In this document: positions 2,420-60,894 of the stretch, piece by piece | Numbering within the stretch: position 1 is the first letter of the stretch | How the letters are laid out: each line of letters begins with the position of its first letter | The notes under the pieces: generated by a model | What the model was told of the DNA's origin: nothing | The model's input: only the letters and a program-made list of their open reading frames with translations | Database searches by the model: none | Source of the DNA: Atriophallophorus winterbourni | Lineage: Eukaryota; Platyhelminthes; Trematoda; Plagiorchiida; Microphallidae | Reading direction: 5' to 3' | NCBI GenBank assembly: GCA_013407085.1 | Contig: JACCGJ010010804.1 | Coordinates: 1-64,000, forward strand | Length of the DNA: 64,000 nt | Translations under genes and position numbers: made by a program

Positions 2420-2440
2420 TCGAGATTAAAGGCAAATTTG
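2420..2440 (+). CDS. Gene A micro-exon, 21 nt, phase 1-1 (EIKGKFG)
   Basis: The exon lies between TTAATACAG and GTGAGT. It reads x-TC GAG ATT AAA GGC AAA TTT G. Its 21 nt are identical in the duplicate at 60165-60185, where the donor is GTAAGT, so a splice-competent donor is kept despite a base change. Confidence 0.85.
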
Positions 2441-5400
2441 GTGAGTGATTTCGGAAAACCATTTATTTATGTCTACATGTTTCATTGAATTTGCGAAGCA
2501 ATTCTCGAATGATAAATGTTATGTTCTACAATCTTAAATATTAATGCAGATAAATCGCATAAATTTATTTTTATGGTTTTATAAGACCATGGGTCTACTG
2601 CAAATTAAAAAAATTTCGGGATGGAATAGAATAGAACTGGTTAAATTTTCTCAATGAAGCATCTCAAATAATATGATTTTTTTATAAGCAAATCAAAAAC
2701 AGATGTATTTAACGTGATTATCGTTGAAACTCTAGTTTTATGTTTAATAGAAAAATCCATAATGAACCGACATTCTATTCTCTGCAATCGGTTGTTTATC
2801 GACATGAATGAGAAAAAGAAAAGTTAATTGATGAATATTAGTAATTTCGGGTGCTTTTCAATGTTTAAGTTGAATTAATACATTTTTATCATGAAAATTA
2901 TAATTCATAAGGTGCATATCATATTAACGATATTAAATTCATCTCAATTATTTTGTATATTGCTTCGTTTTCCCAAACGACATCTTGGTTCAAATGTATA
3001 AACCGACGTATTATACAGCAAAACGTGTTAAAATAATGAAATTAATATTTTTTTAAAAATAATTCTAAGAAAATCTTGAAAATCATTTTCGCAATTTCAA
3101 AATTAATTTGCCTTGGTGTGTGGTCGCCGGAACAGAAAACGATTATTAATAGTTTGATCGATTCTGCACAGTGATCATAACGATAAAAGGTGAGTCACGT
3201 TTCGTTTGAGAGAAAAACAGTTGCCACTCAAAAATAAACACTAATCAGTACGTAGATTGGCACACATTGATAAATCGCTTTTTGCTCATTTGCAATTAAA
3301 CATTTATCTCAAGATTCAAGATTCAAGATTCAAGATTTATGGTGATAAAAACCCTACAATACCCTAGAATATACGTCTAAAAGTTAAACAAACCGTACTT
3401 CAATGTTTGCGTTCATGATTTTTAAAGGAGTCGCAAAAGTAATTTCATTATGTCATTGATAATGGAACTTTCGTCCGGAAATATATGTTTGATTAATTTG
3501 TGTGTTTCCATTTGTGTGTTTAAGAACGAAGCACTCAATATTGTACACCTACACTTTCCCTTGCCTTGTGTACATCGTAGATATGCTCGTAGCCACACCT
3601 TGAGAGTTTGTGAAGGATTTCAGCAAGGTAAACATGAATTATGAACCACGATCAGAGTGTACGTATGATGGCATGCCGAAACCCAAAACATTTCAATGAA
3701 CCGTGAAATGACAGTAGCGCTTGATATATCGTGGCATCAGAAAGCGAAAGCAAAACGGGAACAGTCTAGGATAATTGATAATAAAACCTCTTTAAGTTGG
3801 AATAGATATCGTTCCTTGTAAATCAACACTCAAAAACTTGAACGGATGATTTGATTTGATCAAAGATCCATTATGTGGATTAAAAAATTAGGTTTCAGTT
3901 GTGAACAGAGAATGCTTTGTCAAAAAACAGCTTTTAAATCCTCTAGGGATAGGTTGATTTTTTGAATAAGCACGTGAATTTTAATGATATGAGTGGTGAA
4001 TAATCTTCAGCTTCTACATGGTGTGAACACTTGTGCAAAAAGCACGAAAGTATCAAACACAGTATTATCTGAATATATTCTTTCCAAGAAATTAGTATTT
4101 TTCATCAATCATTTTTATTAGATACTTTTATTGATCGTAGAGTTTGTTATTATGCCGCCAGGACTCAAACACACTACTTTTCAATGTATTTCATATTTCA
4201 TTAAAAAATGTTAGGCGACAAACGTAAATAACATTTCTCGACCAGTTACTTATCAACTCGCTAACATTGTTAAGCTTTTTCAGATGTTTCTTCGCAAAAT
4301 TTGAGAATAATCTCTTTAAATGTTTCAATAGTTTGAATAAGCAAAATATATTTGCAATTCTGCTTTCCTACCTTTTCCTATTACTGCTCCAAATTTCTTC
4401 ATCATTTAACCTCATTCAAGTGGATACACAGAGTTTTTATAACAGCTAAGTAGTCGATTTCGAGTATCGCATGGCATCCCTGTGCATGTAATGATTTATC
4501 TCGTTAGTAAAAAAACATGATTACCGGATACAAATACACAGCATTCGTCTAAGTGTAATGTTAGAAAGCTAATTAATGATCAATGATTTCTGATACTACA
4601 ATTTTAGCGATTGGAAATCAAGTGTTTAAGCGATTAAATGGCACATTAAATCGACGGTTGAACGTGAACAACTAGTATAAAATACTTGTATATGTCGTAT
4701 GTTCCATATGTGAAAGCTTTGAATATATGTGTTTCGGATATACAGTAGTCATCGATACTAAAGTTGTCAGGATATTATAACGTATAGGTTATGTAAAGTT
4801 CATTCATTATTTTTTGTGACTACTCACAAGTACTAAATACATAGAAAATATCCGACTATATCCGCCCATATTGGACTAGTGTTTCACGCTTACTTTAGCT
4901 CAAAAGCAGTGTATATGATAACTTTTCTTGATAGTTCCTGAGATTATAGCTCTCACGTATAGCTATATATTAGTAAATTGTTCATTTTTAAAAGGTTTCT
5001 TTTATTAAGTTGTCGTGCCATTAATATAAATACGTTCCTCTAAACTTAAGGACGAAAACTTCTGCCAATTCAATCATGTCAGTTTCATTATCGAATAATT
5101 TCAAAGCCATAATTATCCGTAGAAAACGCTTAAATTTCATGTATTTGCTAATTCACCATTTAGTTGATATTCGTACACAGAATTTCAGATGATATTTACC
5201 ACTGAGTGTCCAGCTATTTTTATTTCAAGCCATCTTGATCAGATTGAATTTAGAATCTACAATTCTAACTATTGTTTCTCGATCGACTCAAGAAAAGTAT
5301 ACTAAATTTAACTCTGCCAGTTATGTCTATAAATCACATGTCATTCGCCAAATGTAGTGAGAAAATTTTAAATTATCTGCAGTGAAGGTGGAAACGTATT

Positions 5401-8400
5401 CATAAGTTACGAAAAGTATTGTAGGATAATTAGAGTCACGTTGATATTATGGAAACCATTTTCGGCTAATCATTGACCAGAATATCTTGTGTATATTCCC
5501 TAGGAAATCGACCATTGGGAAGACCGCACTTGCGTTACGAAGACATTTGCAAAACAGATATGAAATCTCTTGGCATTGACACCGCGAGTTTGGAAGAACT
5601 TGCTATTGACCACTCACATTGGAGGCATTATGTAATGCGTCGTGTGCAAGCTGGGAGGAGCAGATACAGCTCTTGGCTGCTGAACGCAGATCACCCTGCT
5701 GGCGTGCAGCTGATGCAATACAACCGAGTTCTGACCATCGTTGCCAGCGCTGCCGTAGAGATTGTTCCTCCCGAATCGGACAGTTTAGTAATTCCAAAAG
5801 CTTTAGAACATTAACATTCTTGCGATTATGATGTACATCCATGGTCGACATCGACCGGAGGAAGCCAACAACAACAATCCCTAATATTTTTCAAACTACA
5901 TATCAACATTTTTGATTTACATTTTGCATAATCCTTATTGCATTTTTAAATACGTGCTAACATTTTTGTGACTTTGAAGTATAATCCCGGACGCTCATTA
6001 TCAGATATACAACTGCATGTTACATATATATGTCAATTTGTTGTCCCAGTTAGAGGTCCAACAGAAAAAATGCACTGCAATTCAAATCAATAGATTTCTG
6101 GTTGTTTGTAGGAAGAACTTGATGTTGTAGTTTAATGCAAAATGCATACACTTGACAAACCTATACGTTGCATTTGTGTTATTCAAAGCACAACGTCTTC
6201 ATGTCGCAAGCATTCGAGTAAGCAACTAAAATTGCTTTTGATAGCAATGCCAAAAATATTTCGCGGCGCATGTAACTAACGCAAGTCATATGTTAAATAG
6301 TTACAAACTTCAATATTCACCAAATCTCGGAACACAATACTGTTTCTTCGTTCATCAAGCTGCCAACCATGCTGGTAGCAGTTGTTTCGAGTCCAAGGGT
6401 CGTACACCTGTTGATCGCTTTTTAAGATGGGCCAATTTTCATGTCATTGGTGGTATTGGGAACGTGTTTCTGTAAGCAAATCAGGCCAGAACATAAGATG
6501 ACGTATCCCTGATAGTTGCTTTTTTTCGTTTTGGGGTGTGGCACAGAAGGTAAAATAAAAACTGTTTAGCAGTTGGTGAGATAGTGTAAATTTAGCAACA
6601 TGAAACAAACAAACAAACAATTAATAACAGCCAACCCTGAAAAAATGTAAAAAAAATTCGTTGCAAACATTAAAATTTACTTTGTAAGTATTTGTGGCTG
6701 TCTCATTTGGATCGTCACCTCAAAGTGGCTCAAAAAGTGTGATGGATACCTCCTAACAATTTGGCATGATTCACCATTCACCACAATGATTTGCGGCACA
6801 AAGATTGTCGGAACTTACGATCGTCAGTTAATTTCACTAAGAATGCACTGCAAAAGACCTTTGGAATCTGTGTAATAAAAATAAAATAAAATGAAGTAGG
6901 GGTATATATTAAGCTAAGGTCCCAAAATGTTTAATTGATGGATGAAGGAAATCCGAACATGCGTCCGTTCAAATAACAGCAAAACCATCAAATTTTTAAT
7001 CAAATTAACTCTCTTGGAAACACAAAATAAATTTTCACAAATTTAGTATTTGAAATGACCTATACAGACTGAAAACATTAATCCATTAATATCTTTGTGC
7101 TTATGTCAAACTTTCACATACACCTCTTGGTTTCCACAACTTACTCTATCAGCTATGCGAAATTCCGTATTACGTGGGTTTTTAATTTTTATAATTAGAT
7201 TAGTTTTTTTCTATTTCACTAAAATGACTTTTATTATTCTGTTTATGCGTATGTTCACATTTGAAATTTTTCGTTCATTCTAAACAGCGTTGCATCTAAA
7301 TATAAATGATTTTGAAATACCAACTTTTACTCGATTTGAAGCATAGAATTGAACAGTAGCAGTGTGTTGCACGCAATTGTGCATCTTATTTCAAACATCC
7401 AAATATATGTTGATCGTTTTCTTAACGGATTCGCAAGCACCATAATAGCTACAGTTTCATCAATAGAATGTAAATCAAAAGCTACGAATTCACAAACCTG
7501 ACGCTCTGTAGGCTGGAGAAATTGAATAACGACGATTGTAGTAAACCATTTTTTACCTGAGTTCATTGAAAGATTCGCACGTGCATACGATTCTCGAGGT
7601 TGCAAACTTGAATCTAGTTTTAAATGAACTTTATTTGCTCCATGCCATCATGGTATCGGGGATTCCCTTATAATATTTTAAGCTGTTATGTATGTTTTAT
7701 CCTTTTCACAATTATAACCTCTAAACAAATTGTGGGCACTCAACCACAATAATTTTCAAATAGGCTCACTTGCTGGCAGTTCCATCACACACACACACAC
7801 CACGACCGGTTTCGTGCTGTTTGCACTCATCAGATAATCAGGGACAATAAGGTGACGATCCGCATACGCTTGAGACAGTGAAAGAACGGTACACTGGTTT
7901 CACTTGTATGCCACTATAGAATAAGGTTGGTACCAACAACCTATTTAATCACATGAGCCCCAAATTACTTAGATAGTGTTAAAACCCATTACCGTGAACA
8001 AAAAGCTCATTTAAATGCATTTCCATCACACACTGTTTGAACTCATCAAGAATGGACAGTAGGATCTGGATACGCATGAGCTTGAAACAGTGGATTAATG
8101 GTAAACATTTAGCGCCTGTATGCCACTGTTGGAAAAAGATGGGGTGTGATGGAAATGCATGCAGTTTAGTCATTTTCATGGGCATGGGTGTAAACCCTAA
8201 CTAAATGAGTTCAAGCTCATGTGATTGAACTGGGTGGTCGTACCAACCTAACGCAACAGTGGCATTCAAGCGCAAATTGTTTACAATAATTTTCATTTAT
8301 GGCCAATTCTAGTCATCACTAATTTTATTTTCTACAACATTCTAGTGCCTGTAATAAAACAATGTAAGTCCAAGTTCTCAATATTTATTTTCAAAATAAG

Positions 8401-11500: not shown

Positions 11501-14500
11501 TACGAAAATAAATTGATGGTCAAATATCACAAAGAATATAATGCGACATGTGGATTCTGAATATCAATGACATGTTTATTTTTAATTTATAATAACAAAT
11601 CTTTTAATTCCAAGTATTAATGTATGTTCGAATTTTATCAATTACAGATGGAGATAAATTTATGCGTAGGTCTACCATCAATTTTCCCATTACTAGATGA
11701 GCAATTAAATAGATTTTCGGTCATTGTATTGTATCCATTAATTCTAAATCCTTTGGAATTCATAATAATCATCAATGACCTTTAAATAATATATATGTAA
11801 TAATGTTCGTCATTTAAATATGTAACGATCAGCTTATGATTATATTTTATAAATTTAGTTATAAATTTTAATGAGAGAAAAATGAATTTAATGTATAAAT
11901 ATGCGAATACATAAAGAAAACACATCATTGAAACCGATCGTCTCTTTTCTAAATTCGCCGTACGATACCAAAGTTATTGTGCGAAACGCTAGATTCTAAC
12001 AAAAATAATTCGGTGACATTTGTCGACTAGATAATCAATGTATTTTTCAGCCAAAAAGAATTATATCACTTGAATAATCTTTTTTGTTCAACAATGTACC
12101 ACTGATATAAACCGTTGAATTTGTATGTGATACAGTTGCGCGACAAAGGTTCTACTTTCCTGTTTTAATCACCACGTTGAGAGATTTCTACTTCAAAGAT
12201 GCACAATGAACGTACAATGTCAATTAGACTGCAAGATGTTTCGTCAAATCGATGGAGTTACCATGGTTTCGCCTCAAGGACTGATATATTCCTGAATTGC
12301 AATGGAGATTTGGACATGGTAAACTAGCTCACACATTTTAACCACACACATGATAACATCCCTTTTGCTTACGGACTTAAAAACAATGGACGCCGAGCAT
12401 TTCTTGTCCTTTTACTTACAACAAATTTGGACGAACCTTGGATTAGCCTGGAATTTAAATTGGTCACGGCAGTATACACATTTCATTAGCGCTATTCCAG
12501 TGAAGATAAACCAAAATCTGGTGCATAAACTATTCACGCTAGCAACTCCATTTTTCTCTCAAGAGAATTTTGTTGAAGATCTTGCACTGAAAAGCAGTTG
12601 TATAATCAGAAATGGCTATCCTTGAACGATATATTCCCTCAATGTCAAACGTAATATCTATAACAACATTACATGAGAGAACTTTACATCCATTGTTTCA
12701 ATTTGAAGGCGAAGCCTCTAGTGACTTCTAAGGCTCAAGCCTTAATGAATAGTTTAAAGGACGTTCACTTCTGAAAAGTGCGACAAAACCTTCACCAATA
12801 GGCCAATAATCAGACTTTATCTTAATGACTAACTACCAAGTCAGACAATTCAAATATATATTTATGAATTCACCTGTTCCTGTGAAGCAGGATAAAATGG
12901 CTTAAGGATGAAGAAGCTGGCAAAGCAAATATATGAACATCATCTTAATTGGTTAGGCAAAGACTGTTGTAAGGAGGTGAATGGTTCGAATTCATATCAT
13001 CTAATTGACATAGCCCTCTCGAGTAAAGCCTGAACATGCGTTCCCGATTGTTTGCACGGTCCCTAACAACATTTCATGTGGAGCTGGCTGGAACATCTTG
13101 CAAATATCTAAGGCGATTGCACAAAAAAACGTTTTAAGCAATAATTATGAGTACAACAATGACTAGTGCGTGATTTTGTCTTGGTTAACACCAATATCGA
13201 CCAAACAATTTCAAGAACCAACACATGACATTTAGTTTTGTTTAACGGTTGATGCCGATCAGAACCATTTCTATTTTCTTACGCTTGTATTGTAGAGCTA
13301 GATGAGAAATGCCGGAGAGAAATCTCATCACTTTCTTAAGTTTTTCAATAAATTGTTTTAATGTGCAGTCCTAGTTTCATTATTGTATCCATTAAGTAGC
13401 AAATGAATCCACCATTTATGGTTTGATTGATCGAAAAGAGAAGAGTATCAGTTCGTTTAATAATGCAATAAATTTCAGAAATATATTTTGTAAAAATGAG
13501 TATATTACCTAATTACAGTAGAATACACCCCGGGAGAGGAATCAGGTAATGTTTCATGTAAATTGAATTAATTTCATTGATATTATTACATTTTCGTTAT
13601 GTAATCTTTATTTCAAAATTGTGAATAGTTAAGAAGTTGTTTCTCTGAAAATTTGCCACCAAATAACCATCTAGTTAGCTTGAATGCAAACAATCGCGAT
13701 TATAAATGATTTCAAATAAAAAGTTAATTTATCGATTATTGACATGGGTAACAGCAAAACATTATTGAGTACAAAATGGGTGACTGAAAATTATTCTTTT
13801 CAAAAAGGCTAAAATTTATTGCGGAATATCACATGTAAATTATGAGCACTTGAATGAAATTTGTTGAAATCCAACATTTAATTCGGTTTAAATTCTGTGA
13901 TGTCTGGTTGGCATTAAACATTTAAATAACAAAAAACCCATTTGCATCCATCTACGTCACACACACTCCACAACCGGTTTAGTGCTGTTTGTACTCATCA
14001 GGTAAGGGCAGTAGGATCAGAATCCGCATGCGCTTCAAACCCAGTCTACATGAGTGTGGGCTATTGTGATTGAACAGGTTGGTGCTAACAACCTTATCCA
14101 ATATAGTTTTATGTTATGAAAAGTAACTACTCACCCAGTCTCACATTCTTCATCTTCGTCAATAATTTTTGACAAGGTCATTAACATGTCGGAATTATTT
14201 TATTCTCAGTAATTCCTGCCTACGGTGAGTTACAATATTCGGTATTCAAAGTTCGTTGTCATTAGTTTGATATCAGTTTGATTATAAATATTTTTGCATT
14301 TAGGTTTATTAATTTAGTTTTGTATTTAATCAAATTAAACTCGATCCTTATCTAATAATACATTTCTGTTTGCGGAAAGTTTGACTCAATCCATATATTT
14401 TTAGTTTCTGTGAAAACGAACAGAGGTAAGTTGGAATTTTTATATAACTTTTTAATACTGCGTGCATTTATCTCAACGTTTCCAACTATTCCGCAGTTTC

Positions 14501-17500
14501 AGTGGATATATTTTGGCCTAGTATTCGACCAGGTAGTTTTATGATGAAAACACTTATTTCGAGTTTTAAAATATACATTTTTCCAAGTAATAAACAACTT
14601 TTTCTCATAGTGGCACAATTTGGGAGTAAGTTTAAACCATAAAGATATCAATAAATTCAATCGCAATGAAGATTACTTTCATACCGATTTTAATTATTTA
14701 TTGACTACCATGGAATCAATTATAAAATTTAACGGAGCCTATTTTTTTAACCTAATGAATTATATGCAACTGTTATTTAAAACGTTTCATGAGTATAGTA
14801 TACACTAAATCCGAATGAAAATTCAGAATTAAACATAAACGACCACATTGAAAGTTAACGTACTTACGATTCGTAAAACATCCAACAATTTCTCATGTTT
14901 TAAAATTTTTGTCTTCAGTCACCGCAGAAACAGGTGTGTACAACTTTAATACATCATAAAAATTTAATGCACAAATTAGAAATTGAAATAATCAGAAATA
15001 TAAAACACCGAATTTTGTTACAATATAATTAATTTACTTTTTTAATTTTTGCATGAACTTCACTTTAATAATTGTGTTATTGTTTATAGTAAAATTGCCA
15101 ACGTCAATTTCATTATCCTAAATAGATGAAACAAATATAAGACATAGACATTAATCAACGCATGTCCACATTTGATCGGATTTTATATAAAATAGGAAGC
15201 CGGAGTGTTAAATTTTATTTACCCTTACCTATACTAGAACAAAGCTTGGTTATTACATTCGAAATCAATTAAAATCCTCTACCATAATATTGGTTTCGGA
15301 ATAAAGGATTTATGTCAGAATATAAACTACTTAAGATGATACTTTATGATGCTAATTTTTTTCGAATAAAAAGTCTACGGAAATATCAAAACTCTGTCGA
15401 GACGGAGTGTAATTTTGTTTCTTACACCCACTAAAAATCAGCGGTGTTAAACACATATAGTTATATTTCTTGTAAAATCACTCGTCTATGTTTCCTGCCA
15501 AGATGACTGAATTAAATAAATTAATGTGAATTTTATTTCAGTAACCTACGATTGGCAATCCAATTCCGCAGTCAGAGGTAAACATTAATGCGAAATCCTA
15601 ATTTTTCACCGAAATTTACAATTAATTATTCGCCCGCTTGAGTTCACCAGCAAGCTGTTTTTATATGACATTTAAATCAATTTTTATGTTTACAAAACTA
15701 GTTTCCGTTCAAGAAAATGCAAAATGACATTAATTTGTAAAAATATTAAGCTATTCCGTCCAAGTCTGGAAGTGATGTCAAATAATACTATAATCTATAA
15801 AATATATTCTTAAAATATTTAAATTTTTTCATGAAATCGTACGCTCAGAACATAAGCGCGCAAACCCGAAGCTATGAAACAGCGATAACTAACTTCTGTT
15901 GTAGCAATCAAATACCTTTCAATCAACCTTATAGTATGCTTACACAAAAGCACAAATATTCCTTTGACTAAAACGTCTATACTGCAAAGATTTGAACTGG
16001 ATAGTCGAGTCGAAATGCGAAATTCCTAGACTACCAGGTGCCACTGGTGCGTTGAAACACACAGCGGGTGTGCCCGGTAGGAAAAGCTGCCATTTTCTTA
16101 ATGATTGTTAAGCACAACGTTCGAAAGCTTTTCGTTGTTTTCATTTGTTTTGCGCCTAGACAGAAGCAATTTGTTATGCGACGATATTACATTTCAGTGC
16201 AGCATGTTAATTATTTGTTGTGGCTTTATTGGTGTCAAACTTGAATTAACTAGGTAAACTTGATATTCAAGAAGAGGATTGCCTGACGCGTTTTGTGAAG
16301 TGCTGAATTAATAACCAAAATAGCGAACGATATCCTCTACATTTAGCGCCTTGATCTGCTCGAAAGCTATTTTAACATTATCTGATACTATAGTAGTTAT
16401 ATATATAGATTCTTGCTTATCACGAAGTTCAACACACGGTTTTTCGGAACGATAACTGTTAGTCCAGCCTCAACAAATCCTGGTAGTAATTTTTCGAACT
16501 TGCTTGTGAGATTTCTCATGTACTAGCAAATAGAAGCAGATCATCTGCATAAGCGATTAAATTGATTAACTGGCCCGCAATTTCCACGTTCAGAATTAGA
16601 TCATACAATTCCGAAATCTGGCCATAATTGACAACGGCGAGAATAGTGAATCCATTCGTCTAACATATTTCTTTTGTATATTGCAAACATCATTCGGTAA
16701 TTGTGGGATGCTGTATTATAAGAATTCTTAATTTTCCTAACAACAGCTGCGTATCACCAAATTAAGCCACAGTTAAGAGAGTAGTCTCCTGAGAAACCGA
16801 GTCAAAATCCTTCGACAACACTATACTAGCGACCGAAGCCGGTATAACGTGAGTGTGTGCGGTACGCAGAATAACATGTAATACAGCTATTGCTTCGCAG
16901 TATCCATCGCGTCGAAGAAAAGCGTTTTGCTTTTTCAGCTGTTCGAAGTGTTTAAACCACATTTACCTAAGATATTATTGAGACAACGTACCATGACAGA
17001 AGTAATTGAATTTGGACTGTAGTCTTTAGGAGTTTGCAGCATTAACACTTTGAAAAAACTCTACTTTAGTTTTGTTAGGCTAGTTCCACGTGTAGATTGG
17101 ACGGCTTAATTGATGTCTCAAATCGATTAGATTACACAGCATATTAATAGTCGGGAAACGGTTAATTAAATAAACGCATGGTTTAAGTTACACAATATTT
17201 TGTAAATAAGATAAGATCTTTTGTGATATTTCACTTACGTGTTCTGTAAAAGTCTTATTCAAGTCAATGGATGGTGTTCCATTTAGATTTGTGATGTTAT
17301 TACAGTTACTCAAAATAATAATACTATTAATACTAGTACAACTAAACGTAATGATAAACCAATGGCAATCATTATTTTGTATCATGTAACTTCGATTAAT
17401 TGTCTGCATATTTGCAATCACTGGCACTCCACAACTGGTTTCTGGCCGTTTGTCGATCATCAGGTTGTAAATGTATAATTAGGCTCAGTAAGCCTTGACG

Positions 17501-20500
17501 CCGTGGCATTGGTAGAAACATGAAACTTCCATGCCAACCTTAAATGGGGTCATTAGAAAGCACCATCATGTTCAAAATACACAATCACAAAGGGAATTCG
17601 GGTGAACTACGTGCGACACTTAAAATTGACCAATATAATGTGGTGTGCTTACATTCTCCACACATACAGGATATAACCTGGCCGTCATCATGTAAAGACA
17701 GTGAACCGTTCGTGGGGTGTATCTGGAGATGATGTGCGTACATCATATTATTTGCTCATTTTAAGCTTCCTGGACACTTGAAAAAAAATCACTTCATGGT
17801 TCTGTGATTGCATATCAGGGGTCATTTTAATAACTCTATTTAACATCGACATTTAAATATAACTTTTTTATTCTCTGAATGAACTCAGCTGTTTGATTTT
17901 TTCTTTTTTTGAAATGTGGTGTGATAATACTGGGCATTTAATATGATATTCTTTCATACAACAAAATTTCGATTACTCTGCATTTCATAGCCACCACAGC
18001 TATTGGTTGAACCGTATCACAATATACGTTTATGACGTGATAATAAATGAATCTTTTTCTTTTAACAAATATCAAAGTGACCTCTGAAGTAAATTTCATT
18101 TACATACCACAGGTTTGCTTACGAATGCAGAATACCTAGCAGGTAACGCCATCACTTATAGCTTATAGCTTAGCCTTGGTTGAGTATATTTGATAATTCT
18201 TCGCGAAGCTCAGTTCATCGTGCGGTAAAAGCAATATGGCTTAATCTAGCATTGAATTATAACTTTGTCTAGCAGATATTTATTTGTTATTCTATCATAA
18301 GGATGATACCATAAAAAAGCACATAAAACCGATAATTACATAGCCTTAAGATGTGAAGATTCGAAAACGATACTTCAATTTATAGAACAGATTCCCTAAA
18401 GTTTATTGGGTTTGAATTATAAACAATTTAAAAAATAAATGGTAATTGACGAAATTGTGTAATGTGTTTTCTGTAAGTGGAATAAATGTTGATTCGCGAT
18501 GTATATAGCGCAAAACGATGGGAATTTTTGCGTTAAATGTAACGATTGTTTTCATCGGCAAAGCTGCTTGCTACTACTTCAGATAATTATATTCCAAACT
18601 AATCTAGTAACAATTGAAGACCAAAGTTATGTGTTGCTCACATCCCCCGCAATCACACACCACTATCGGTTTGTGGCTGTTTGCCGTCATCTGGTGGTGA
18701 CAGTATTATTAGTTTCACTGAGCCTTACAACAGTGGATTAGTGGCAAACAATACTATGCTATACTTGAATGCCACTGTTACATAGGGTTCGTACAACGAA
18801 CCATGATGTTCAAACACAGATTCACATAGTGACTCTTGGTCAAGCACTCAACCATAAGCGCCTTGAGTGCTAGATCAAGAATCACTAAATTGAAGACCAT
18901 GTTTATATTTTCAATTACGTTACTCGCTCGGTAAATCGATAAGTTTTTTGTATGTATCACACTTGAGTAATAAATTCCGTTTTATATCCTTATAAAAATA
19001 CAGGTAATGGGTTATTATAATATTGTGATTCATTTTCCATTTGAAAAGTTGAAGCTGATTTACAAAGTAAGTATGAAATCCATAAACTAGACCGCTGGCC
19101 TGCATAATCCTTCCTCTGATTAATCAATAAAAATTCTTCAAATTTCAGGTAGAACTGGTGAGCTATGATACATTGTGACATCTTTTATTTTATACATTTC
19201 CGTGGGCCAAATATATCGATATAAACCTTGATGAATTGCTGTTTGTTTGTTTGTTTGTTTAGCGTGTTCGATAATTTATAAGCATCGTGATCGCCTGAAA
19301 TGCACTATTTTTTGTGATTCCTACTTGAACAACTTGGTTGTTCATTTAGATTCCTATATTACACTGGCTTCGAATTTTAACGAAAAATTAGTGAATCGCA
19401 ATCAGTGTATAGTAAGACTGTGTAGAGCAATATTATACCAGCTAATGAAAATGAATTTGCAATACTATATTAGGAGAGTGTTTTAGGCCTAGCTTCGCCA
19501 GTAACCGCTTGGTAATTTATCTCATATGGTTAAGTCTACGTCCGTTATCTTGCAGTAAAATTTGCGTCACATATGAAGCGTGAGTTTGCATGATAATTAA
19601 ATTAATGGATGCCATATTAATGTTCTAAAATTGTAATATTTGAAATGATTCTGAAGATTGACTTTCAATTCCGATTATACTCTAATGGCACCGTTCTCAC
19701 CTAGCCTCTGGCATTCAAGTCTAACTCATGGCACGTTTGCTTGGTTCTGTGTGACGCAGAGAAATTTCTTATAGTGACTCTGAAAACGGTGGAGTTGGGT
19801 GTCTAGAACGCTAGCACGGGTCACTGGAGCTCGTAAGTTCATTAAAGCCGTTTACCCACAAAATACAAAGACCTTATCTAAATCAAGCACTTTCTTTTGT
19901 TGTTTATTCAATGATGGAAAAGTCTCCAAGCACCGATCTCACGGGAACATCCTGAACCGGAGTCCCGTTGAGCATTTTTGAATTTATAATCAACGCGTTC
20001 TGGCAACTCATGCTACAGCATCGTTATCCAAATATATCACCTTAGCAAGTTCTTTATTTTCAATGGTGTCCTGCAAAGAGATCCCTTGTTTAATCGGCCA
20101 CTTCTAGCTCTCAAGATTGAACTCTCATGGCCTATATCTAATAGCACCAAAGAAGGGGACACTCCATACCACTTCTGTGGTTCCATCAGCAATCAAGTTT
20201 GACGTCACACTTCAGGTTAACAGTACCATGATAAATAAAGCAGCTAATGTGTCGTGTTTCATGATTTCCCTCCTACCGACAAATTTGGCGCACGTGACCG
20301 CCATTGCTGAGCTTCGCTTGTAACGTTATGACGCAGAGGTGAGAACATTATTGACCGATCAATGATAAATTAGCCTGCACGAAATCTAGTCTGAAGAGGA
20401 TGACAATTTGCTGGAGTTGGATGAATGAACAATCTCGCCTCCATGAAAGGTGAATAACAAGAGTCCTAGTAGCTCTTTGAGATTTGATCGGATTATCCAA

Positions 20501-32859: not shown

Positions 32860-32889
32860 GTAACGTATGATGGAGATCCAGTGCATACT
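32860..32889 (+). CDS. Gene C micro-exon, 30 nt, phase 0-0 (VTYDGDPVHT)
   Basis: The acceptor is ATTTGTCACTCCAG and the donor is the perfect GTAAGT. Phases 1 and 2 hit stops at once. This is the first visible exon of gene C. Confidence 0.75.
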
Positions 32890-49346: not shown

Positions 49347-49384
49347 CACGACCGGTTTCGTGCTGTTTGTACTCATCAGGTAGG
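49347..49384 (-). ncRNA. Predicted hammerhead ribozyme, array unit 1
   Basis: The complement has CTGATGA (49373-49379), GAAA, the palindromic stem III ACCGGT (49351-49356) and C at the cleavage position. Stem II is GTAC/GCAC with one A-C mismatch around loop AAACA. Stem I pairs CUAC with GUGU next to the site. Confidence 0.68.
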
Positions 49385-49582
49385 GACTGTAAGATCAGGA
49401 TCTGCATGCGCTTGAAACAGTGGAGGAATGGTAAACAAGGAGCGCTTGTATGCCACTGTTGGAATAAGGCTGGTACGACCAACCTGTTCAATCACATGTG
49501 TCCAAACACATGTTTAATGGAGTTATACCCACAACCATGAAACAAAATATTCATCTGCATGCTTTTCCTTCACAAAACATCC

Positions 49583-49619
49583 CACTACCGGTTTCGCGCT
49601 GTTGCACTCATCAGGTAGG
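49583..49619 (-). ncRNA. Predicted hammerhead ribozyme, array unit 2
   Basis: The complement has CTGATGA (49608-49614), GAAA, stem III ACCGGT (49587-49592) and A at position 17, which hammerheads tolerate. Stem II is GUGC/GCGC (one G-U pair) with a four-base loop. Confidence 0.68.
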
Positions 49620-49906
49620 GACAGTAAGATCGAGATCCGCATGCGCTTAAAAAAGTGGATGAATGGTAAACAAGGAGCGCTTGTATGCCACTATTGGAAT
49701 AAGGCTGGTATGACCAACCTGTTTAATCGCATGTGTCCAATCACATGTTTACTGGGGTTAAACTCATAACCATGAAACAAAATATTCATCTGCATGCTTC
49801 TCCTTAACAAAACACCCCACGACCCGTTTCGTGCTGTTTGTACTCCTCATGTGTTTGGACACATGTGTTTAAACAGGTTGGTCGTTCCTGCCTTATTCCA
49901 ACAGTA

Positions 49907-51222
49907 GTTCACTACACTTTCCAGGATACAAACATTATGAGATATGTGAAAGAATTTTTCATCCACGTAACAAATTTTTATTTCTGTAAGCACTGCTGAC
50001 CAAGTCGTAGTTGAGAAAAAATCACGGCAGTTACTTAGTTCGATCATTCATTTTATTGATGAATGTCACGAAGTATTCAAATTAAATGATACGTTTGACG
50101 CCAGCAATGAATATTGATTGATGCTTTCACGGTATAGGGAACAATCATGGTTTTTTCGGCTTATTTTTCTTCGTCGCTTGGATATGTTTTTGATGTATCT
50201 GAACAACAATTAGGGTATATGTTGAAAATAGAATGCAGAAGAATTGGATTCCCAAAAATGCAAATTTAAATGCGAATATATGCAGGTTTGTGGAAGGTTT
50301 AGTGGAGTCTCACGTACTACGTTTGCACATGAACCGAGTGAATTTTCTAAACGATTTTTACTCGTGAAATATTGTTTGTTACGTGAATTACTTCTCCCGT
50401 AAACAAAGGAAAATAATTATTATCCTTTTCTGAGCATCTTCACAACCTAAATCATTGGTGAAATTTAAGGAATGAACAAGCCTTGTGAGTTGAGAATCAC
50501 CACAACATCGCTCAGAATTTCCAGTCCCATTTATCAGCAGATGCCGATTCAACGCGCTTATGAATAGCTGCTTTGACGTTATGGACAAGAGCTCGTTTAG
50601 TAGCAAGTTCAAATTTATCAACATCAGTGTGAAAGCATGCTCGCATCACTCAGATTGAAACTTCTAGGCTTTGTAAACTTACCTATATATAGACGAGTAT
50701 TTCATTGCAAAAAACTAATTTGATTAACTGGGAAAACCTGTCACGTTATGGAAAGAAAAAGATGCGACGGGTCATGGAAATATAGAACTTTCATATTCGA
50801 AGTTTAAACAGTGAAAGTTCAAGCAAGTTCGGTTTATCCTTCTATGAAAGGTGGCGCTTAATATGCACTATCAATGTAGACTACGTTTCATCCTCATTTT
50901 CGACTTTAGACTATGGGTACTCTTCGGAAAGCTTACAATCTAGAAATAAACGAACATCTGGCAAAACGTTTTGAAATATTAGCCTGGCAATAGCACATAA
51001 TATCCCACTAGATAAAATCTCCGACTTGCACTTCAAAGAATCCGTAACCAAAATACTTAAATTGTTTTTCGTTGGTAAATTCATGCACTTGTGGATACCA
51101 ACGCACACGCTAGAAGGAAGCCCTTTATTTTACACTGAATCGATATCTCTAAGTTTTTCGATCACAAATTTAAGTGTGTTCTTACTTTTCCTTCCAATTT
51201 AATTTTGTTCCTTTAGCTCCAC
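49907..51222. other. Intergenic, nothing definite
   Basis: Minus-strand frames 50624-50388 and 51108-50911 have no recognised family. I do not call genes here. Confidence 0.45.
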
Positions 51223-54900: not shown

Positions 54901-54967
54901 ATGCGTCAGCTCAGGTTCCTGTGCGCTCTATTGATTTTTGTTACTATGTGCCGTAGATCATTAAGTG
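54901..54967 (+). CDS. Gene B exon 1: signal peptide
   Basis: 67 nt from ATG to the first base of a split codon. Arg residues at 2 and 5, hydrophobic FLCALLIFVTM, and cleavage expected near the end of the exon (SLS). The donor GTAAGT is followed by an intron of only 46 nt. Confidence 0.8.
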
Positions 54968-57900
54968 GTAAGTTTGGTCCGTTAATGCAACTTATTCCAT
55001 ATATGCATTTTAGTGTGTATTGATGCAATTAATTCATTAAATGAATTGTTGAGAATTTTATCGTATCACGAAACATATATAGTCATCCACAATTTTAATA
55101 TTCCAGAACTGTTTTTCCAATTCGGTAAGTTATATACCCTTGACAAATTATTGGTGGGACGTTATCTACACTATCCAACTTTAACTCAAGAAATTGTTAC
55201 AGAACACAACAACTACGATTTTATATTGATACCGCGTAAGTATATTTAGGTGTTATCTGTTTGTGTATTTGCATGCAGATTGTTGTTAAATACGTCAAAA
55301 ATCATATTTTCAAATGGTTAGTTATTCACTTCTTTACAACGATTGCCAATCTGATTTTTTAACTTTTCCATTTGATTAAACATTATTATTTTATATATCA
55401 ATGATTACAAATCGTAGATTCAATTATTCTTAGCAGTTTGCTTAGAGCTCGACAATTGGTGAGCTACCGTTGATTTACTTACACCAGTTAAGATTGGGCT
55501 TGGTAAGTTAATGAGAGCAGGAAAAATCACGCTCACAATATTCCTGAAGAATGTAGGGGGTTTCGAAACGATGACTTTACGATATCCTACAACCTCGATT
55601 TCCCTTCCAAAATTTTTTATGATAAAGATTCATATTTGACCTCTGATAAAGTTTGATGTTAAATATCGAACGGATTTACTTGTAATCTATATTACTAAAA
55701 ATGTTGAACGCAGATTTATCTCATTAATCTCGATGTTATATCTAACAAAAGACTTGAAAGCGAAAAAGTGGTAATGAAGTACTGTATTCTCGTGAACAGG
55801 AATAGCTTGTAAACAGATATATTTTAGTAATTAAGTTTGGATTTATTTTAGTTAATATCTTGCATGTGGCAATACTAGTTATCTAATTTTAAGCATTCTG
55901 CTTATTACGTCTCGCAAAAATCCATCAATCAGAATTAGTGTTTAGATTTTGAGATTCGCAACAGTTAAAACATAGCTATGAAAGACTTTTCACGTCACAT
56001 CAAAGTGATTTTATGAAGTGTAATGATTTTTTAATATTCAACAGAGGGTCAAAATGAAGGTAATATCGTATTTAATGAATGTTCTAAGAAATTTTTGTTC
56101 ATTGCCGATAACATAATATGTTTGAAAATTCCATTTCCCCAATTGACTTCAGGTATGATCACAAAGTCGTCAAATCTATAGCTCGTCACCACCTTAATTC
56201 GTTTGTAAATTTTCATAGGAAGAATAAACCCAAATATTAAAATTTAAAAATATATCAACAAGGGAAGATACGGAATATTACTGGTTTCACATGTTGATAG
56301 CTATACGATATTCTTGCACTTGGTTGTGATGCTCATGTCCAGTGGTTCTTAAAACGTCGTCAATGGTTATTATAACCTATGAAGAACAACTAGAGATGAT
56401 ACCACATAAGAACTCTGGAAAAAACAAAATAACTATTTTATCTTAATAATACAACTGATTTAAAATGAAAATAGCCCTAAATTTTACGATCGCAGTTATT
56501 CACGTATTTCTTCGAGCGAATGTACAGAAAGTATATCATTTATGCTGCAGACAAATATTATCCCATGACTCAACAGCGAAATAGTAATTTTTATTATGCG
56601 GATGATAATTTTTTCTTTTATGGAAATCAGAACTAAATGATTTTAAAAGCTCATTCAAACGCAATCTGGATTAAAATCAAACATTCATTGAAATACGCAA
56701 CCAATTCCATGCGAATGTTTCGAAATTATTTAATTATAAATAAGCATTTGAATTAAAGAACTTAAACACTCATCGTAAAAATTTGAAAATTGCTGTTTCA
56801 AGAAATTATTTTTGATTACAACATGTTAAGTCATAGCCCACATTTTTCTGCTTTCCACCAAAATTTATGGAACGTCATGAGGAATCTGGTTTGAAAAATA
56901 TTCGCCAGTGATTTTATAACCCAAATCTTTACATAGGTGTCAAATTATTGCAAACTATATTTAAAGAAATGAACACGACATCCATGCGTTCTAACCAGTA
57001 AAAAAACCATATCACCCGTATAGCTCCGTATTAAATAAACTTAAGATAAGCAACTTGTAAGAGCGAAAAACTCTTCCGTTATTGTTTAACTAATTTAAAT
57101 TTAAATTATTTACTTTACAGTCACCATATCTGAATGTAAAGGTAATGACGCTTGACGATCTAGGAACTCTCAGATTTTATTGTTTTCATTTTGTTATAAT
57201 AGAATCACACTTGAAACATTCTAACAATTTCTACATCTCCTAGATAAACAATCCAAAAAAATGTTTCGATTCAATCGTAGTGGCTGTAAGTTAATTGACT
57301 AGCAAATACATTTTGATTATTCGTAAACATTATCGTTCGATGATCTCAAGTTCATTATTCCGACTAATAAATTTTATCCTGTGTTTATTTCAAAAGCCAA
57401 AAAATGTGAAATATTTCTCATTGAAGGTATGGTATATAATTAAAAATGATAGTTTTTTACCTCGTCACGAATTGAACATTGGCGTTGTGCCGTACTTTTA
57501 TCGAAAATAAATAAACGTCCGTATTTCACCAATTGATGATATATGATCATGAGTTTTAGTATAATTGAATATTTTTGAAAATTTGATCCACGCAGTTGGT
57601 ATCAATCAGGAAACTGAACAAGGTTTGTCAAACTTTTCTTAAAAACGGAGTATAATAAATGATTGAATAAATGTTTTACTTTCACAAAACTGCAAGATTC
57701 ATTTTATTCGAAGCAGTCATTGTTATTGATTTGGTTGGAAATTGCTGTTCTTAGATTGATGAAACAGTGAGACGTACATAACGCTCGTTCAAAACCTTAA
57801 TTTCTAAATTATCTTGAAATATTCATTACTTTAATAATATTTAATAAAAAGTTTGCATTGTGGCTCAAATGTCCCTGAAATTTTGTTTTGGTAATTATTC

Positions 57901-60894
57901 ATCATCATTATTTATTTGACCGCAAGTTAAATACGCTGGTTCAAATGATACGGTTGTTCAGCAAATCTTGAAATTGTAGTCGCAGATTATGTAGGCATTG
58001 TACATTATAGACAAATTGAACGTTTTATCAACAACTCTGCGACTTTGTATTTGAACATCGTGATTCTTCGTACGATCCTAATAAAATAGTATACCTTTTT
58101 TATCAATTGGTAATTGTTCGGTAAAATTTTAACTCAAACATCATTGTTCTATGTAAGTGAACATAGAGAATGCTAATCATGAGACAATAAAACATTTCAA
58201 ATGTATATACAATATTTCTTATAAAGTGAAAACCAGAGCTGCTGACAGTGAGCGTTGCAAAATAAAAAATATATTCATAAGATATTATGAGTATTTCTAT
58301 AAAACATCTCGAATATTACGCAATTCTCTTCCAGAAAGTGTGGATGTTCTAGTCAGAGGAAGAAAACTCGCATGTACGAAACAGTCTCTACTACAGAATT
58401 ATCGCTTAATTCATATATCTATTTAAAGATAACATTACACAGATTGAAGATTTTATGTCAAAAACATTTTGCAGATCCAATTGATAAAGGATGCGACGTT
58501 ACCGGCATGTTTACTTTTGAACATTTTTTATGGGATTGTTGCCATATTTACGTAGAGATAAACACATTTTGGCAGTATTAGATCACTTTTGTGTACAATA
58601 TTTTAAAAAGGATTAAAATTAAATTGATTAAATGAATATTTAATATTTTCAGGAATTTCTTCAACTAAACATTATAACTGGAGATCAATTTTTTTATTAT
58701 TCAGAGTTTCTCAAATGCTTTACGTTTTTCGACATGCTGTACTCGAAGAAACTGCATTGAAGACTGCTTAGTTAAAATAATATAGATGTGTTTGAATATG
58801 AAACGTGACATAAAAATGCAAATTCGCTGCGAACTAGTCCACTCATCAGATTTTATTTCAAGATTCACTTGGGCGGGGTTGATAATTATTTGGCCTTGAG
58901 CGTACAAGTTTGGTTGCCGATATTGAGTGAAATGTAAACATTTGATAAACCGGTGAAAGCAATCCTGTCGTAGAACATTCTGATGAATCAAATTTATAGG
59001 GCTAGATATCACTAACTAAACGGCATGAAATTACTCGCAGTTGATTATTTTATAACGTATACGGATAAGAGTTTAGATCATATGTCGTTGCCTTAATTTG
59101 TATGAATATGATTTTTATTTCAAACAAAACATTAAAAAATATATTCGTTGTCAAATCTAACAGTCGAAAAAGACTATCCCTGCTACGTCACAGGTGTGTC
59201 TTTGAGGATTTTTTAAATACTATTTATCATCATAATAATACATGTTTGAAATTTATTCATTTAAAACTTTCTGTACACTGTGTTCAATCCGATCATACAT
59301 AGTAATATCAAAGTTTAATTTTAAACATCCCCATAAGTATAATGATCATGCTATCATTTCCATTACAACTTAGAGGATAAACATGATGCTGCGGTGTTTG
59401 TTTGTAACAGTTGTATAATCTTGTTAGCTTTACATTGACCGTTCAATAAATTGATTTCAAAGTGATTCAAAGTGATTCAAAGTTGTAATGGTCTAAAAAG
59501 CATTTAGCTTAACAATATCATTTTGTTCGATTTACCTGAAACATCTCATCATAATTTAGAATTAAAAAAATATAATTTAATAGCATGATTTCACTTATTA
59601 GTTTTCAACCTGCATATCATTTTCGTGAAAATTGCTTCCTATCTTTCAACTTTTATAAACTAAATTATAAAAGATTTGGCTTATTTGGATATTTCTTCGG
59701 TGTAACAACCCAAAAATATAGATTATTATTTTATGTGAACATATGAGATTTATGTATTTGACAGTTACGTTTTTGAAATGTGAGCTGAAAGTTTGCAGGA
59801 CAGCTAGTAACGAAATCCGTTTGATTTAAATATACTACTGAGATAATATTGCTATTTTTAACCTTTAATTATTTGGTTCATAGCGATAAGACTAGGACAT
59901 ATTTTACGTTGGATTATGAAACAGTGCAGTTGATTACACATTGTTCAAGTATAACTTTGTTTAATCACGTTTAAATTTATAAAAAAAATCAAATCCCTAT
60001 ATATGTTGTTTTTTCATAAATATAATTCTTTGACTTTCTCTTCATAATGCATCATTTGATTCGGACTTAAATATCGTAAGGGAAATTGCTGGAAATTGCA
60101 AACGTAATTGAATTGAAAATCTCAATTTATAAATGACCTAGTGAAAAATTAATTTCTAATACAGTCGAGATTAAAGGCAAATTTGGTAAGTGATTTCGGA
60201 AAGCCTTTCATTTATGTCTACACGTTTCATTGTTATGTTCTACAATCTTGAATAGTAATCCAGATATATCGCATAAATTTACTCTTATGGTTTTATAAGA
60301 CCATGGGTCTACTGTAGATTAAAAAAATTCCCGTGAAGAATAGAATAGAACCTGGTTAAATTAAATCAACTCGAGTAATATGATTTTTTAAGCAAATCAC
60401 GATTAATCTCGAACAGATGTGTTTAAGGGGATTATCGTTGAAACTCTAGTTTTCTGTTTATTAGAAATGAGCCGTCATTCTATTCTCTACAATCGGTTTT
60501 TGTAACTATATGAATAAGAAAAAGAAAACCTAATTCATGAGTATTAGTAATTTCAGGTGATTTTCAATGCTTAAGTTGAATTAATGCACATTTATCATAA
60601 AGAGTCTAATTCATAAAATGCATATTATATTACCAACATTAAATCCATCATAATTATTTTTTATATTGCTTCGTTTTTCGAAAAAAACCAGTTGGTTCAA
60701 ATGGATACACCATCATATTACACAGCACAACGTGTTAAAATAATAAAATTAATATTTTTTAAAAATTATTTCAAGAAAATCTTGAAAATCATTTTCTCAA
60801 TTTCGAAATTAATTTGTCTTGGTGTGTGGTCGCCATAACAGAAAAGATTATTAATATTATGATTGATATTGCTCAGTGCTCATATCGGTAAAAG
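54901..60894 (+). CDS. Gene B: micro-exon gene (MEG-like) with signal peptide, 3' end off window
   Basis: Exons are 54901-54967 (start), 55014-55235, 55488-55502, 56045-56059, 57121-57141, 57244-57285, 57596-57622, 59164-59193, 60165-60185 and 60877-60894, continuing right of the window. Exon 1 begins with ATG after AAACA and encodes MRQLRFLCALLIFVTMC, a basic start plus hydrophobic core typical of a signal peptide. It ends in phase 1 at a perfect GTAAGT donor. All following exons are phase 1-1 and multiples of 3 (222, 15, 15, 21, 42, 27, 30, 21, 18). A 119-nt open exon at 58653-58771 could be an alternative ending. This architecture (signal exon, then symmetric micro-exons) is that of schistosome MEGs, which encode secreted proteins. 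The last two exons are the duplicates of gene A exons 2420 and 3172, so B is most simply the next tandem copy. Role unknown. Confidence 0.78.
55014..55235 (+). CDS. Gene B exon 2 (222 nt, or 111 nt with an internal donor)
   Basis: The acceptor is ATATGCATTTTAG. The exon is open only in phase 1: VCIDAINSLNELLRILSYHE and onward to FILIPR. Two good donors exist, both phase 1: GTAAGT after 55124 (111 nt) and GTAAGT after 55235 (222 nt). The N-terminal half resembles the frame at 10029. It is the only long exon of the gene and could fold as a small helical domain. Confidence 0.78.
55488..55502 (+). CDS. Gene B micro-exon, 15 nt, phase 1-1 (KIGLG)
   Basis: The acceptor is GATTTACTTACACCAG and the donor is GTAAGT. 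Confidence 0.68.
56045..56059 (+). CDS. Gene B micro-exon, 15 nt, phase 1-1 (GQNEG)
   Basis: The acceptor is TTTTTTAATATTCAACAG and the donor is GTAATA. An AG two bases further in would break the phase. Confidence 0.65.
57121..57141 (+). CDS. Gene B micro-exon, 21 nt, phase 1-1 (TISECKG)
   Basis: The acceptor is TTATTTACTTTACAG and the donor is GTAATG. Phase 2 has a stop. It contributes a cysteine. Confidence 0.75.
57244..57285 (+). CDS. Gene B micro-exon, 42 nt, phase 1-1 (KQSKKMFRFNRSG)
   Basis: The acceptor is CTACATCTCCTAG and the donor is GTAAGT. Phase 2 has a stop. The peptide is strongly basic. Confidence 0.78.
57596..57622 (+). CDS. Gene B micro-exon, 27 nt, phase 1-1 (GINQETEQG)
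   Basis: The acceptor is TTGATCCACGCAG; the donor is GTTTGT, weaker than the others. Phase 2 has a stop. Confidence 0.62.
58653..58771 (+). CDS. Possible alternative terminal exon of gene B
   Basis: After TATTTAATATTTTCAG the phase 1 frame stays open for 38 codons (starting ISSTKHYNWRS) to TAG at 58769-58771. No clear AATAAA follows. It could be a real ending or a chance frame after a good-looking acceptor. Confidence 0.4.
59164..59193 (+). CDS. Gene B micro-exon, 30 nt, phase 1-1 (EKDYPCYVTG)
   Basis: The acceptor is TTGTCAAATCTAACAG and the donor is GTGTGT. It lies just upstream of the duplicated segment, in the part that is missing from the left copy within this window. Confidence 0.62.
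60165..60185 (+). CDS. Gene B micro-exon, 21 nt, identical to 2420-2440 (EIKGKFG)
   Basis: The acceptor is AATTTCTAATACAG; the donor is GTAAGT, where the left copy has GTGAGT. The exon sequence itself shows no change while both flanks do. Confidence 0.85.
60877..60894 (+). CDS. Gene B micro-exon, 18 nt, phase 1-1 (LISVKG)
   Basis: The acceptor is TGATATTGCTCAG and the donor is GTGAGT. It matches 3172-3189 in length, phase and donor, with several coding differences. Confidence 0.78.

What the first reader, a model, noticed from the sequence alone, without database searches (positions are those of the whole stretch)
2420..60894. A micro-exon gene locus hidden from ORF-based annotation
At least 26 very short exons with AG/GT borders were found in three chains. 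Seen directly: all lengths are multiples of 3, gene A and B exons are all open in phase 1, gene C exons are all open in phase 0, and for several exons (21084, 21389, 22938, 28808, 55014, 32860) only that phase is open. Random AG...GT pairs would be symmetric in a given phase about one time in nine. Known: symmetric micro-exons behind a signal-peptide exon define the MEG genes of schistosomes. Inference: this is a new or divergent MEG cluster with unusually many exons and long introns.
Basis: partly seen in the sequence, partly recalled or inferred. Interest (0 to 1): 0.92.

Follow-up and report, generated by a model that had tools for sequence, protein, structure and literature searches.

The report
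Tandem flatworm micro-exon gene locus
This stretch of what looks like a flatworm genome carries genes cut into many tiny exons whose lengths are multiples of three, including parts of two tandem copies of one gene, a layout already known from the micro-exon genes of schistosomes and tapeworms.

Summary
With one acceptor-donor pair per strong donor, the + strand has 27 exon-like segments of length 3n against 3 and 1 in the other classes; shuffles give 5.2: 4.4: 4.2 (0 of 100 reach 27) and the minus strand 8: 4: 2. The symmetric ones are open in the claimed phase in 9 of 10 (A), 6 of 6 (B) and 8 of 8 (C). All six exons said to be open in one phase only are.

Exons 2420 and 3172 correspond to 60165 and 60877, the 2 of 18 conserved splice pairs that are equal-length, symmetric and open. 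So chain A is part of gene copy 1, and chain B, with its signal-peptide-like exon at 54901, the 5' part of copy 2. Chain C (phase 0) may be a separate gene or copy 1's 3' end.

Best explanation: micro-exon genes (MEGs) of a flatworm, for secreted proteins diversified by skipping symmetric exons. New member of a known kind: MEGs and their tandem clusters are published. Expression, skipping, family and species were not established.

The parts
1549..6679 (+). Copy 1 of a tandem segmental duplication (5483-5909 has no counterpart in copy 2)
   Evidence: blastn self-comparison: 1549-5482 = 59248-63215 at 78%, 5910-6679 = 63224-63992 at 81%; 3153 of 3800 gap-free columns identical over 1549-5482
59248..63992 (+). 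Copy 2 of the tandem duplication, about 57.7 kb downstream
2420..2440 (+). Chain A micro-exon, 21 nt, phase 1; same exon as 60165-60185
   Evidence: splice sites, length and 21 of 21 bases conserved between copies
3172..3189 (+). Chain A micro-exon, 18 nt, phase 1; same exon as 60877-60894
   Evidence: splice sites, length and frame conserved; 15 of 18 bases, not above background
13519..13545 (+). Chain A micro-exon, 27 nt, phase 1
   Evidence: acceptor 6.7, donor 3.9
14210..14224 (+). Chain A micro-exon, 15 nt, phase 1
   Evidence: acceptor 10.3, donor 8.8
14405..14425 (+). Chain A micro-exon, 21 nt, phase 1
   Evidence: acceptor 6.4, donor 9.1
14611..14625 (+). Chain A micro-exon, 15 nt, open in all phases
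   Evidence: acceptor 6.0, donor 9.1
14919..14933 (+). Chain A micro-exon, 15 nt, open in all phases
   Evidence: acceptor 8.8, donor 6.4
15542..15577 (+). Chain A micro-exon, 36 nt, phase 1
   Evidence: acceptor 8.2, donor 3.8
19556..19579 (+). Chain A micro-exon, 24 nt, phase 1
   Evidence: acceptor 8.9, donor 8.8
21084..21125 (+). Chain A micro-exon, 42 nt, only phase 1 open
   Evidence: acceptor 5.2, donor 5.3
21389..21427 (+). Chain A micro-exon, 39 nt, only phase 1 open
   Evidence: acceptor 7.3, donor 7.2
22938..22961 (+). Chain A micro-exon, 24 nt, only phase 1 open
   Evidence: acceptor 9.6, donor 5.1
26621..26644 (+). Chain A micro-exon, 24 nt, open in all phases
   Evidence: acceptor 9.9, donor 6.7
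28704..28739 (+). Chain A micro-exon, 36 nt, open in all phases
   Evidence: acceptor 9.6, donor 3.7
28808..28834 (+). Chain A micro-exon, 27 nt, only phase 1 open
   Evidence: acceptor 7.9, donor 8.8
32255..32367 (+). Tentative terminal exon of chain A (enters in phase 1, stop, AATAAA downstream)
   Evidence: acceptor 9.1; 63 terminal-exon candidates on + and 51 on -, so weak
32860..32889 (+). Chain C micro-exon, 30 nt, only phase 0 open
   Evidence: acceptor 8.3, donor 9.1
33086..33136 (+). Chain C exon, 51 nt, phase 0, lower confidence
   Evidence: acceptor 4.4
33210..33239 (+). Chain C micro-exon, 30 nt, phase 0
   Evidence: acceptor 5.8, donor 8.8
33925..33954 (+). Chain C micro-exon, 30 nt, phase 0
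   Evidence: acceptor 5.0, donor 8.8
34204..34221 (+). Chain C micro-exon, 18 nt, phase 0
   Evidence: acceptor 4.9, donor 8.8
34408..34437 (+). Chain C micro-exon, 30 nt, phase 0
   Evidence: acceptor 5.6, donor 8.8
35106..35135 (+). Chain C micro-exon, 30 nt, open in all phases, lower confidence (AAG acceptor)
   Evidence: acceptor 3.3, donor 8.8
35222..35251 (+). Chain C micro-exon, 30 nt, open in all phases
   Evidence: acceptor 8.5, donor 8.8
37262..37288 (+). Chain C micro-exon, 27 nt, phase 0
   Evidence: acceptor 6.1, donor 8.8
37329..37400 (+). Tentative terminal exon of chain C (phase 0, stop, AATAAA 14 nt on)
   Evidence: acceptor 7.8; same caveat as 32255
54901..54967 (+). Chain B first exon, 67 nt: ATG, hydrophobic signal-peptide-like leader, exit in phase 1
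   Evidence: hydropathy 3.33, donor 9.1; among 41 rows of hydrophobic ATG exons on both strands none is higher on both measures (17267/17294 has 3.34 but donor 5.4)
55014..55124 (+). Chain B exon 2, 111 nt, only phase 1 open (or the 18-nt 55107-55124)
   Evidence: acceptor 3.8 (55014) or 8.7 (55107), donor 9.1
55203..55235 (+). Chain B micro-exon, 33 nt, phase 1
   Evidence: acceptor 3.3, donor 9.1
55488..55502 (+). Chain B micro-exon, 15 nt, phase 1
   Evidence: acceptor 6.6, donor 9.1
56045..56059 (+). Chain B micro-exon, 15 nt, phase 1
   Evidence: acceptor 6.9, donor 3.7
57121..57141 (+). Chain B micro-exon, 21 nt, phase 1
   Evidence: acceptor 10.5, donor 3.9
57244..57285 (+). Chain B micro-exon, 42 nt, phase 1
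   Evidence: acceptor 6.0, donor 9.1
57397..57426 (+). Chain B micro-exon, 30 nt, lower confidence (AAG acceptor)
   Evidence: acceptor 3.8, donor 5.3
59164..59193 (+). Chain B micro-exon, 30 nt, open in all phases
   Evidence: acceptor 4.8, donor 6.4
60165..60185 (+). Chain B micro-exon, 21 nt; copy-2 counterpart of 2420
   Evidence: acceptor 7.0, donor 9.1
60877..60894 (+). Chain B micro-exon, 18 nt; copy-2 counterpart of 3172
   Evidence: acceptor 5.2, donor 8.8

Best explanation
Parts of two tandem copies of a micro-exon gene (MEG) of a flatworm. Copy 2 starts at a signal-peptide-like exon (54901); the start of copy 1 is outside the window. Splicing strings together many exons of 15-42 nt that enter and leave in phase 1, so skipping any one removes a few residues without breaking the frame. 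The product would be a secreted protein made in many near-identical versions. A run of phase-0 micro-exons (32860-37288) between the copies is either a second MEG or the 3' end of copy 1 behind one frame-shifting exon. Shown here: the excess of symmetric exons, the common phase, the leader exon, the duplication, and the conserved splice sites and frames of two exons. Inferred: that the exons are spliced, skipped, expressed and secreted. The roles in the host (variation seen by immunity, blood processing) are taken from schistosome MEG papers, not from this window.
For: Symmetric-exon excess on the + strand, 27:3:1 against shuffles 5.2:4.4:4.2 and minus strand 8:4:2. Phase-1 excess in 7.7-29.2 kb and 54.4-61 kb, 0 of 200 shuffles each at summed score >=13. 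The phase exit of the 54901 exon matches the chain phase. Of 18 splice pairs conserved between the tandem copies (1549-5482; both sites >=3 in both copies, 9-120 nt), 2 are equal-length, symmetric and open in both, and they are 2420/60165 and 3172/60877; 2420 is 21 of 21 identical, reached by 1.5% of windows. Exonic donor bases, not used in selection, score higher in symmetric phase-1 pairs than in other pairs (p 0.013, 0.016, 0.0012 at >=11, 12, 13). Predicted chains meet the published operational MEG definition on exon counts (definition; 15 of 15, 9 of 11 and 9 of 9 micro-exons, longest runs 15, 9, 9).
Against: No RNA data. The exon list, region borders and cut-offs were chosen after seeing the sequence. 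Exon 3172 is no better conserved (15 of 18) than its surroundings (58% of windows do as well). Exon GC stands above flanks at one of three cut-offs only (p 0.012, 0.14, 0.19). Chain C is not significant on the looser cut. The minus strand also leans to 3n with strong donors (8:4:2, p 0.058). Neither chain A nor C has a well-supported last exon. Chain B introns (46, 78, 252, 542, 1061, 102, 111, 1737, 971, 691) fit the reported 5'-short pattern only in part. The FL-hydrophobic-F...W(K/H/R) motif reported after MEG signal peptides was not seen by eye in the 54901 exon.
Confidence: 0.85

Rival explanations
1. A selection artefact: AT-rich DNA offers many AG...GT pairs and the reader picked symmetric ones.
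For: Pairs are abundant: 370 on + at summed score >=9.
Against: Length-class and phase bias on the + strand that shuffles (0 of 100), the minus strand and 37.4-54.4 kb do not match; two exons with conserved sites and frames in both tandem copies.
Confidence: 0.03
2. A different many-exon gene with symmetric exons rather than a MEG, for example a VAL-6-like composite (venom-allergen-like domain plus micro-exon part) or a long structural protein.
For: VAL-6 is reported to have a MEG-like part, and MEG and VAL loci share transposon types (PMC4350168, passages). The 5' end of copy 1 and the 3' end of copy 2 lie outside the window.
Against: Copy 2's 5' end is inside the window and its predicted exons from the third on are micro-exons. 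Exon 2 has no Pfam match; the leader exon matches only DUF5373 at E 0.088, below its cut-off.
Confidence: 0.08
3. Chains A and C are one gene (compatible with the best explanation): one non-symmetric exon between 28834 and 32860 switches from phase 1 to phase 0, and the gene ends near 37400.
For: No hydrophobic ATG exon with a phase-0 exit was found between 28.8 and 32.9 kb. Five phase-1-to-0 candidates exist there, two with acceptor above 8 (32255-32328, 32564-32580), plus a terminal exon with AATAAA at 37329. Published MEGs may hold one or two exons not divisible by three.
Against: A phase-1 terminal exon is possible at 32255-32367. Dropping the hydrophobicity rule gives seven ATG rows with phase-0 exit (donors 5.1-7.2), one of which, 32275-32328, could be chain C's own start. 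Such candidates are common by chance.
Confidence: 0.45
4. A decayed, untranscribed MEG copy.
For: The copies differ at 17% of gap-free columns, and the window holds repeated and transposon-derived sequence.
Against: The listed exons are open in the chain phase (15 of 15; 10 of 11, the ATG exon being read from its own start; 9 of 9), though openness was a selection criterion. Strong donors persist.
Confidence: 0.1

Closest known systems
Micro-exon genes (MEGs) of Schistosoma
   Same: Signal-peptide first exon, runs of short exons divisible by three, long introns, tandem clusters, enrichment in transposons (PMC10526429 and PMC4350168, parts read)
   Different: No match to a named MEG family was sought with a joined protein; one chain runs in phase 0; one apparent intron of 10.3 kb
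Tandem MEG family on Chr6 of the tapeworm Hymenolepis microstoma
   Same: MEGs in one region that expanded by tandem duplication and share a leader-like motif (PMC7653826, passages)
   Different: Homology of the leader was not tested; host lineage here is unknown
VAL-6 (composite of a venom-allergen-like gene and a MEG)
   Same: Part of the gene is made of very small symmetric exons (PMC4350168, passage)
   Different: No VAL domain seen in the three single exons scanned

Membership tests
Micro-exon genes (MEGs) | Exons under 70 nt and divisible by three; at least 7 exons, at least half micro, run of at least 4 (PMC7653826) | tested here: met
   15 of 15, 9 of 11 and 9 of 9 predicted exons; longest runs 15, 9, 9; more than chance. 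The exons are predictions, and selection favoured symmetric ones.
Micro-exon genes (MEGs) | N-terminal signal peptide | tested here: met
   54901-54967, by hydropathy and donor only, for copy 2; chain A's start is outside the window and chain C's was not found
Micro-exon genes (MEGs) | Introns of 0.1 to 5 kb, shorter near the ends | tested here: inconclusive
   Chain B's first five introns lengthen (46 to 1061) but then come 102 and 111; two are under 100 nt; chain A has a 10.3-kb gap and a 68-nt intron
Micro-exon genes (MEGs) | Exon skipping gives many isoforms | not testable with these tools
   Needs RNA
Micro-exon genes (MEGs) | Sequence similarity to a numbered MEG family | not tested
   Exons were not joined; see referred step
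Micro-exon genes (MEGs) | Host is a platyhelminth | tested here: inconclusive
   RTE-type ORF: best named hits Trichobilharzia szidati 53-57%, but gastropods at 52-54% follow closely (428 hits, 120 listed). Gypsy-type ORF: Spirometra/Sparganum 45-52%, Schistosoma 44-47%, Calicophoron 46% (2216 hits, 120 listed). No near-identical record among those listed.
VAL-6-like composite | VAL (SCP/CAP) domain in the same gene | tested here: inconclusive
   Three single exons scanned: no match for 55016-55123 and 37329-37397, DUF5373 at E 0.088 below cut-off for 54901-54966; most of both genes was not scanned

The most novel reading that the evidence does not exclude
One MEG unit that runs through two phase regimes, a phase-1 block of at least 15 exons followed by a phase-0 block of 9 exons, six of them exactly 30 nt yet unlike each other in sequence. 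Exons could be skipped freely within a block but not swapped between blocks. It would sit in a flatworm whose retrotransposons match no listed species closely.
Probability: 0.2. Interest if true: 0.55.

Novelty: new member of a known kind. Interest (0 to 1): 0.4.

Why it matters
Micro-exon genes are easily missed by gene finders, and their number across flatworms is uncertain; PMC7653826 (passages) calls for a concerted curation. The window shows that a symmetric-exon and phase test against shuffles and the opposite strand can find such a locus from raw DNA alone, and that a tandem copy in the same window can serve as a comparative check. The copies also give a place to test whether micro-exons or their splice sites are what selection keeps. 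It does not change what is known about MEGs in kind.

Tried and rejected
Chance selection: rejected by the length-class test and region shuffles. A simple donor-plus-acceptor cut already showed the bias (at acceptor >=6, donor >=5: + 37:13:24, - 13:16:19).

Exon GC as independent support: only one of three cut-offs, not used. Identity of exon 3172 between copies: not above background, not used. The 30-nt chain C exons as recent exon duplicates: rejected, 3 to 10 of 30 positions identical between the six.

Terminal exons: 63 candidates on + and 51 on -, so the two named are tentative. Candidate exons looked at and left out of the list of 35: 11648-11665, 14497-14532, 20989-21000, 58335-58373 (all scored; 20989 is counted among the strong-donor pairs), 8346-8363, and one near 57596 that I entered with wrong borders and did not rescore. 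33086-33136 was also mis-entered (as 33087-33137) and corrected.

Species: two transposon ORFs were searched without a near-identical record among the 120 listed of 428 and of 2216. Rfam at gathering thresholds: 0 matches. The founding MEG paper (DeMarco et al. 2010) is not held; it is known to me only through papers that cite it. PMC12998952 (MEG-8.2) was seen in a search listing only.
Full report
What was claimed. Some 26 micro-exons in three chains, all divisible by three, with a shared phase per chain, read as a MEG cluster.

Test of the observation. I scored acceptors and donors by intronic bases only, with approximate weights typed from general knowledge, so that length and reading frame were free to vary. 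Taking one pair per strong donor (score >=8), + strand lengths mod 3 fall 27: 3: 1; 100 dinucleotide-preserving shuffles give 5.2: 4.4: 4.2 with a largest class-0 count of 12; the minus strand gives 8: 4: 2. The bias holds at weaker donors (>=7: + 40:9:17, - 15:16:13; >=5: + 96:50:59, - 55:53:59). It sits in 1.5-29.2 kb (10:2:0), 29.2-37.4 kb (8:0:0) and 54.4-61 kb (6:0:0), not in 37.4-54.4 kb (2:1:1), where gypsy- and RTE-like sequence lies. Phase 1 is open in 9 of 10 and 6 of 6 of the first and last groups, phase 0 in 8 of 8 of the middle one. An earlier region test agrees for the phase-1 groups (0 of 200 shuffles each at summed score >=13), more weakly for 1.5-7.7 kb (7 of 200) and for phase 0 in 29.2-44 kb (3 of 200 at >=13, 40 of 200 at >=11). 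The six exons said to be open in one phase only are so, 6 of 6.

The duplication. A self-comparison shows that 1549-5482 and 5910-6679 recur at 59248-63215 and 63224-63992, 57.7 kb downstream, on the same strand. Over 1549-5482, 3153 of 3800 gap-free columns agree, with 302 further gapped columns. Of 18 acceptor-donor pairs with both sites kept in both copies and 9-120 nt apart, 2 have equal lengths, divisible by three, and an open frame in both: exon 2420/60165 (21 of 21 bases; 1.5% of windows do as well) and exon 3172/60877 (15 of 18; 58% do as well). So base identity supports one of the two, while splice sites and frame support both. The 5' part of copy 1 lies beyond the left edge, where reverse-transcriptase sequence occupies about 1-1.4 kb.

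The start. Among 41 rows of hydrophobic ATG exons on both strands (20 on +, 21 on -), 54901-54967 has hydropathy 3.33 and donor 9.1; one other, 17267/17294, has 3.34 but donor 5.4. Its exit phase, 1, is that of the chain that follows.

Chain C. Nine phase-0 exons from 32860 to 37288, six of exactly 30 nt and mutually dissimilar (3-10 of 30 positions). A terminal exon with stop and AATAAA may follow at 37329-37400. No hydrophobic ATG exon with phase-0 exit was found just upstream, though seven ATG rows exist without that condition. Five exons that would switch phase 1 to 0 are possible between 28.8 and 32.9 kb, and so is a phase-1 terminal exon at 32255-32367. With 63 and 51 terminal candidates on the two strands, none of this is decisive. 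I give about even odds that C is the 3' end of copy 1.

What it is. The published operational definition (exons under 70 nt and divisible by three; at least seven exons, at least half micro, a run of four or more; PMC7653826, passages) is met by the predicted chains: 15 of 15, 9 of 11, 9 of 9. Schistosome MEGs are described with 10 to 20 exons, a signal peptide, introns of 0.1 to 5 kb that are shorter at the ends, clusters and nearby transposons (PMC10526429, abstract, introduction and first part of the results). Tandem clusters within 50 kb and transposon enrichment are in PMC4350168 (passages and one section). Counterparts of MEG-4 and MEG-8/9 in Trichobilharzia are reported in PMC5825161 (abstract and one section). 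The intron pattern here fits only in part: chain B runs 46, 78, 252, 542, 1061, then 102 and 111.

How it would work. Symmetric exons can be skipped singly or in groups without a frame shift, so one gene can yield many secreted variants. Whether this happens here is inferred. The host roles proposed in the literature were not tested.

Organism. 35% GC or so; an RTE-type ORF closest among named hits to Trichobilharzia szidati (53-57%), with gastropods close behind; a gypsy-type ORF closest to Spirometra/Sparganum at about 50-52%, with Schistosoma at 44-47%. A flatworm near the blood flukes is my inference; the species is unknown.

Limits. No RNA, no second species, no own-genome search, exon choice after the fact, and no joined protein, so no test against the numbered MEG families.

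Noticed in passing
window 49344-49385 and 49812-49856 (-); related repeats near 7.8, 13.9, 37.5 and 41.4 kb: A family of short interspersed repeats carries a hammerhead-ribozyme-like core: Hammerhead_1 (RF00163) at 25.8 bits, E about 0.00055, below the family's gathering score of 34; only 49290-49920 was scanned at that setting.
   Followed up: partly
window 45184-47138 (-) and surroundings: Gypsy-type retrotransposon remains with reverse transcriptase and RNase H domains (46356-47138); nearest named proteins about 50-52% identical, from Spirometra/Sparganum.
   Followed up: partly
window 1-1450 (+): RTE-type non-LTR reverse transcriptase sequence with RVT_1 and DUF6451 matches in 528-1115, just upstream of the left copy of the tandem duplication.
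   Followed up: partly
window 30084-30650 and 53591-54242: Two related stretches (67-72% identical), reverse-transcriptase-like by eye, without a Pfam match in the ORFs tested.
   Followed up: no
window 44490-44793 and 49011-49309: A direct repeat of about 300 bp at 83% identity, spaced about 4.5 kb around the gypsy-type sequence; might be its long terminal repeats.
   Followed up: no
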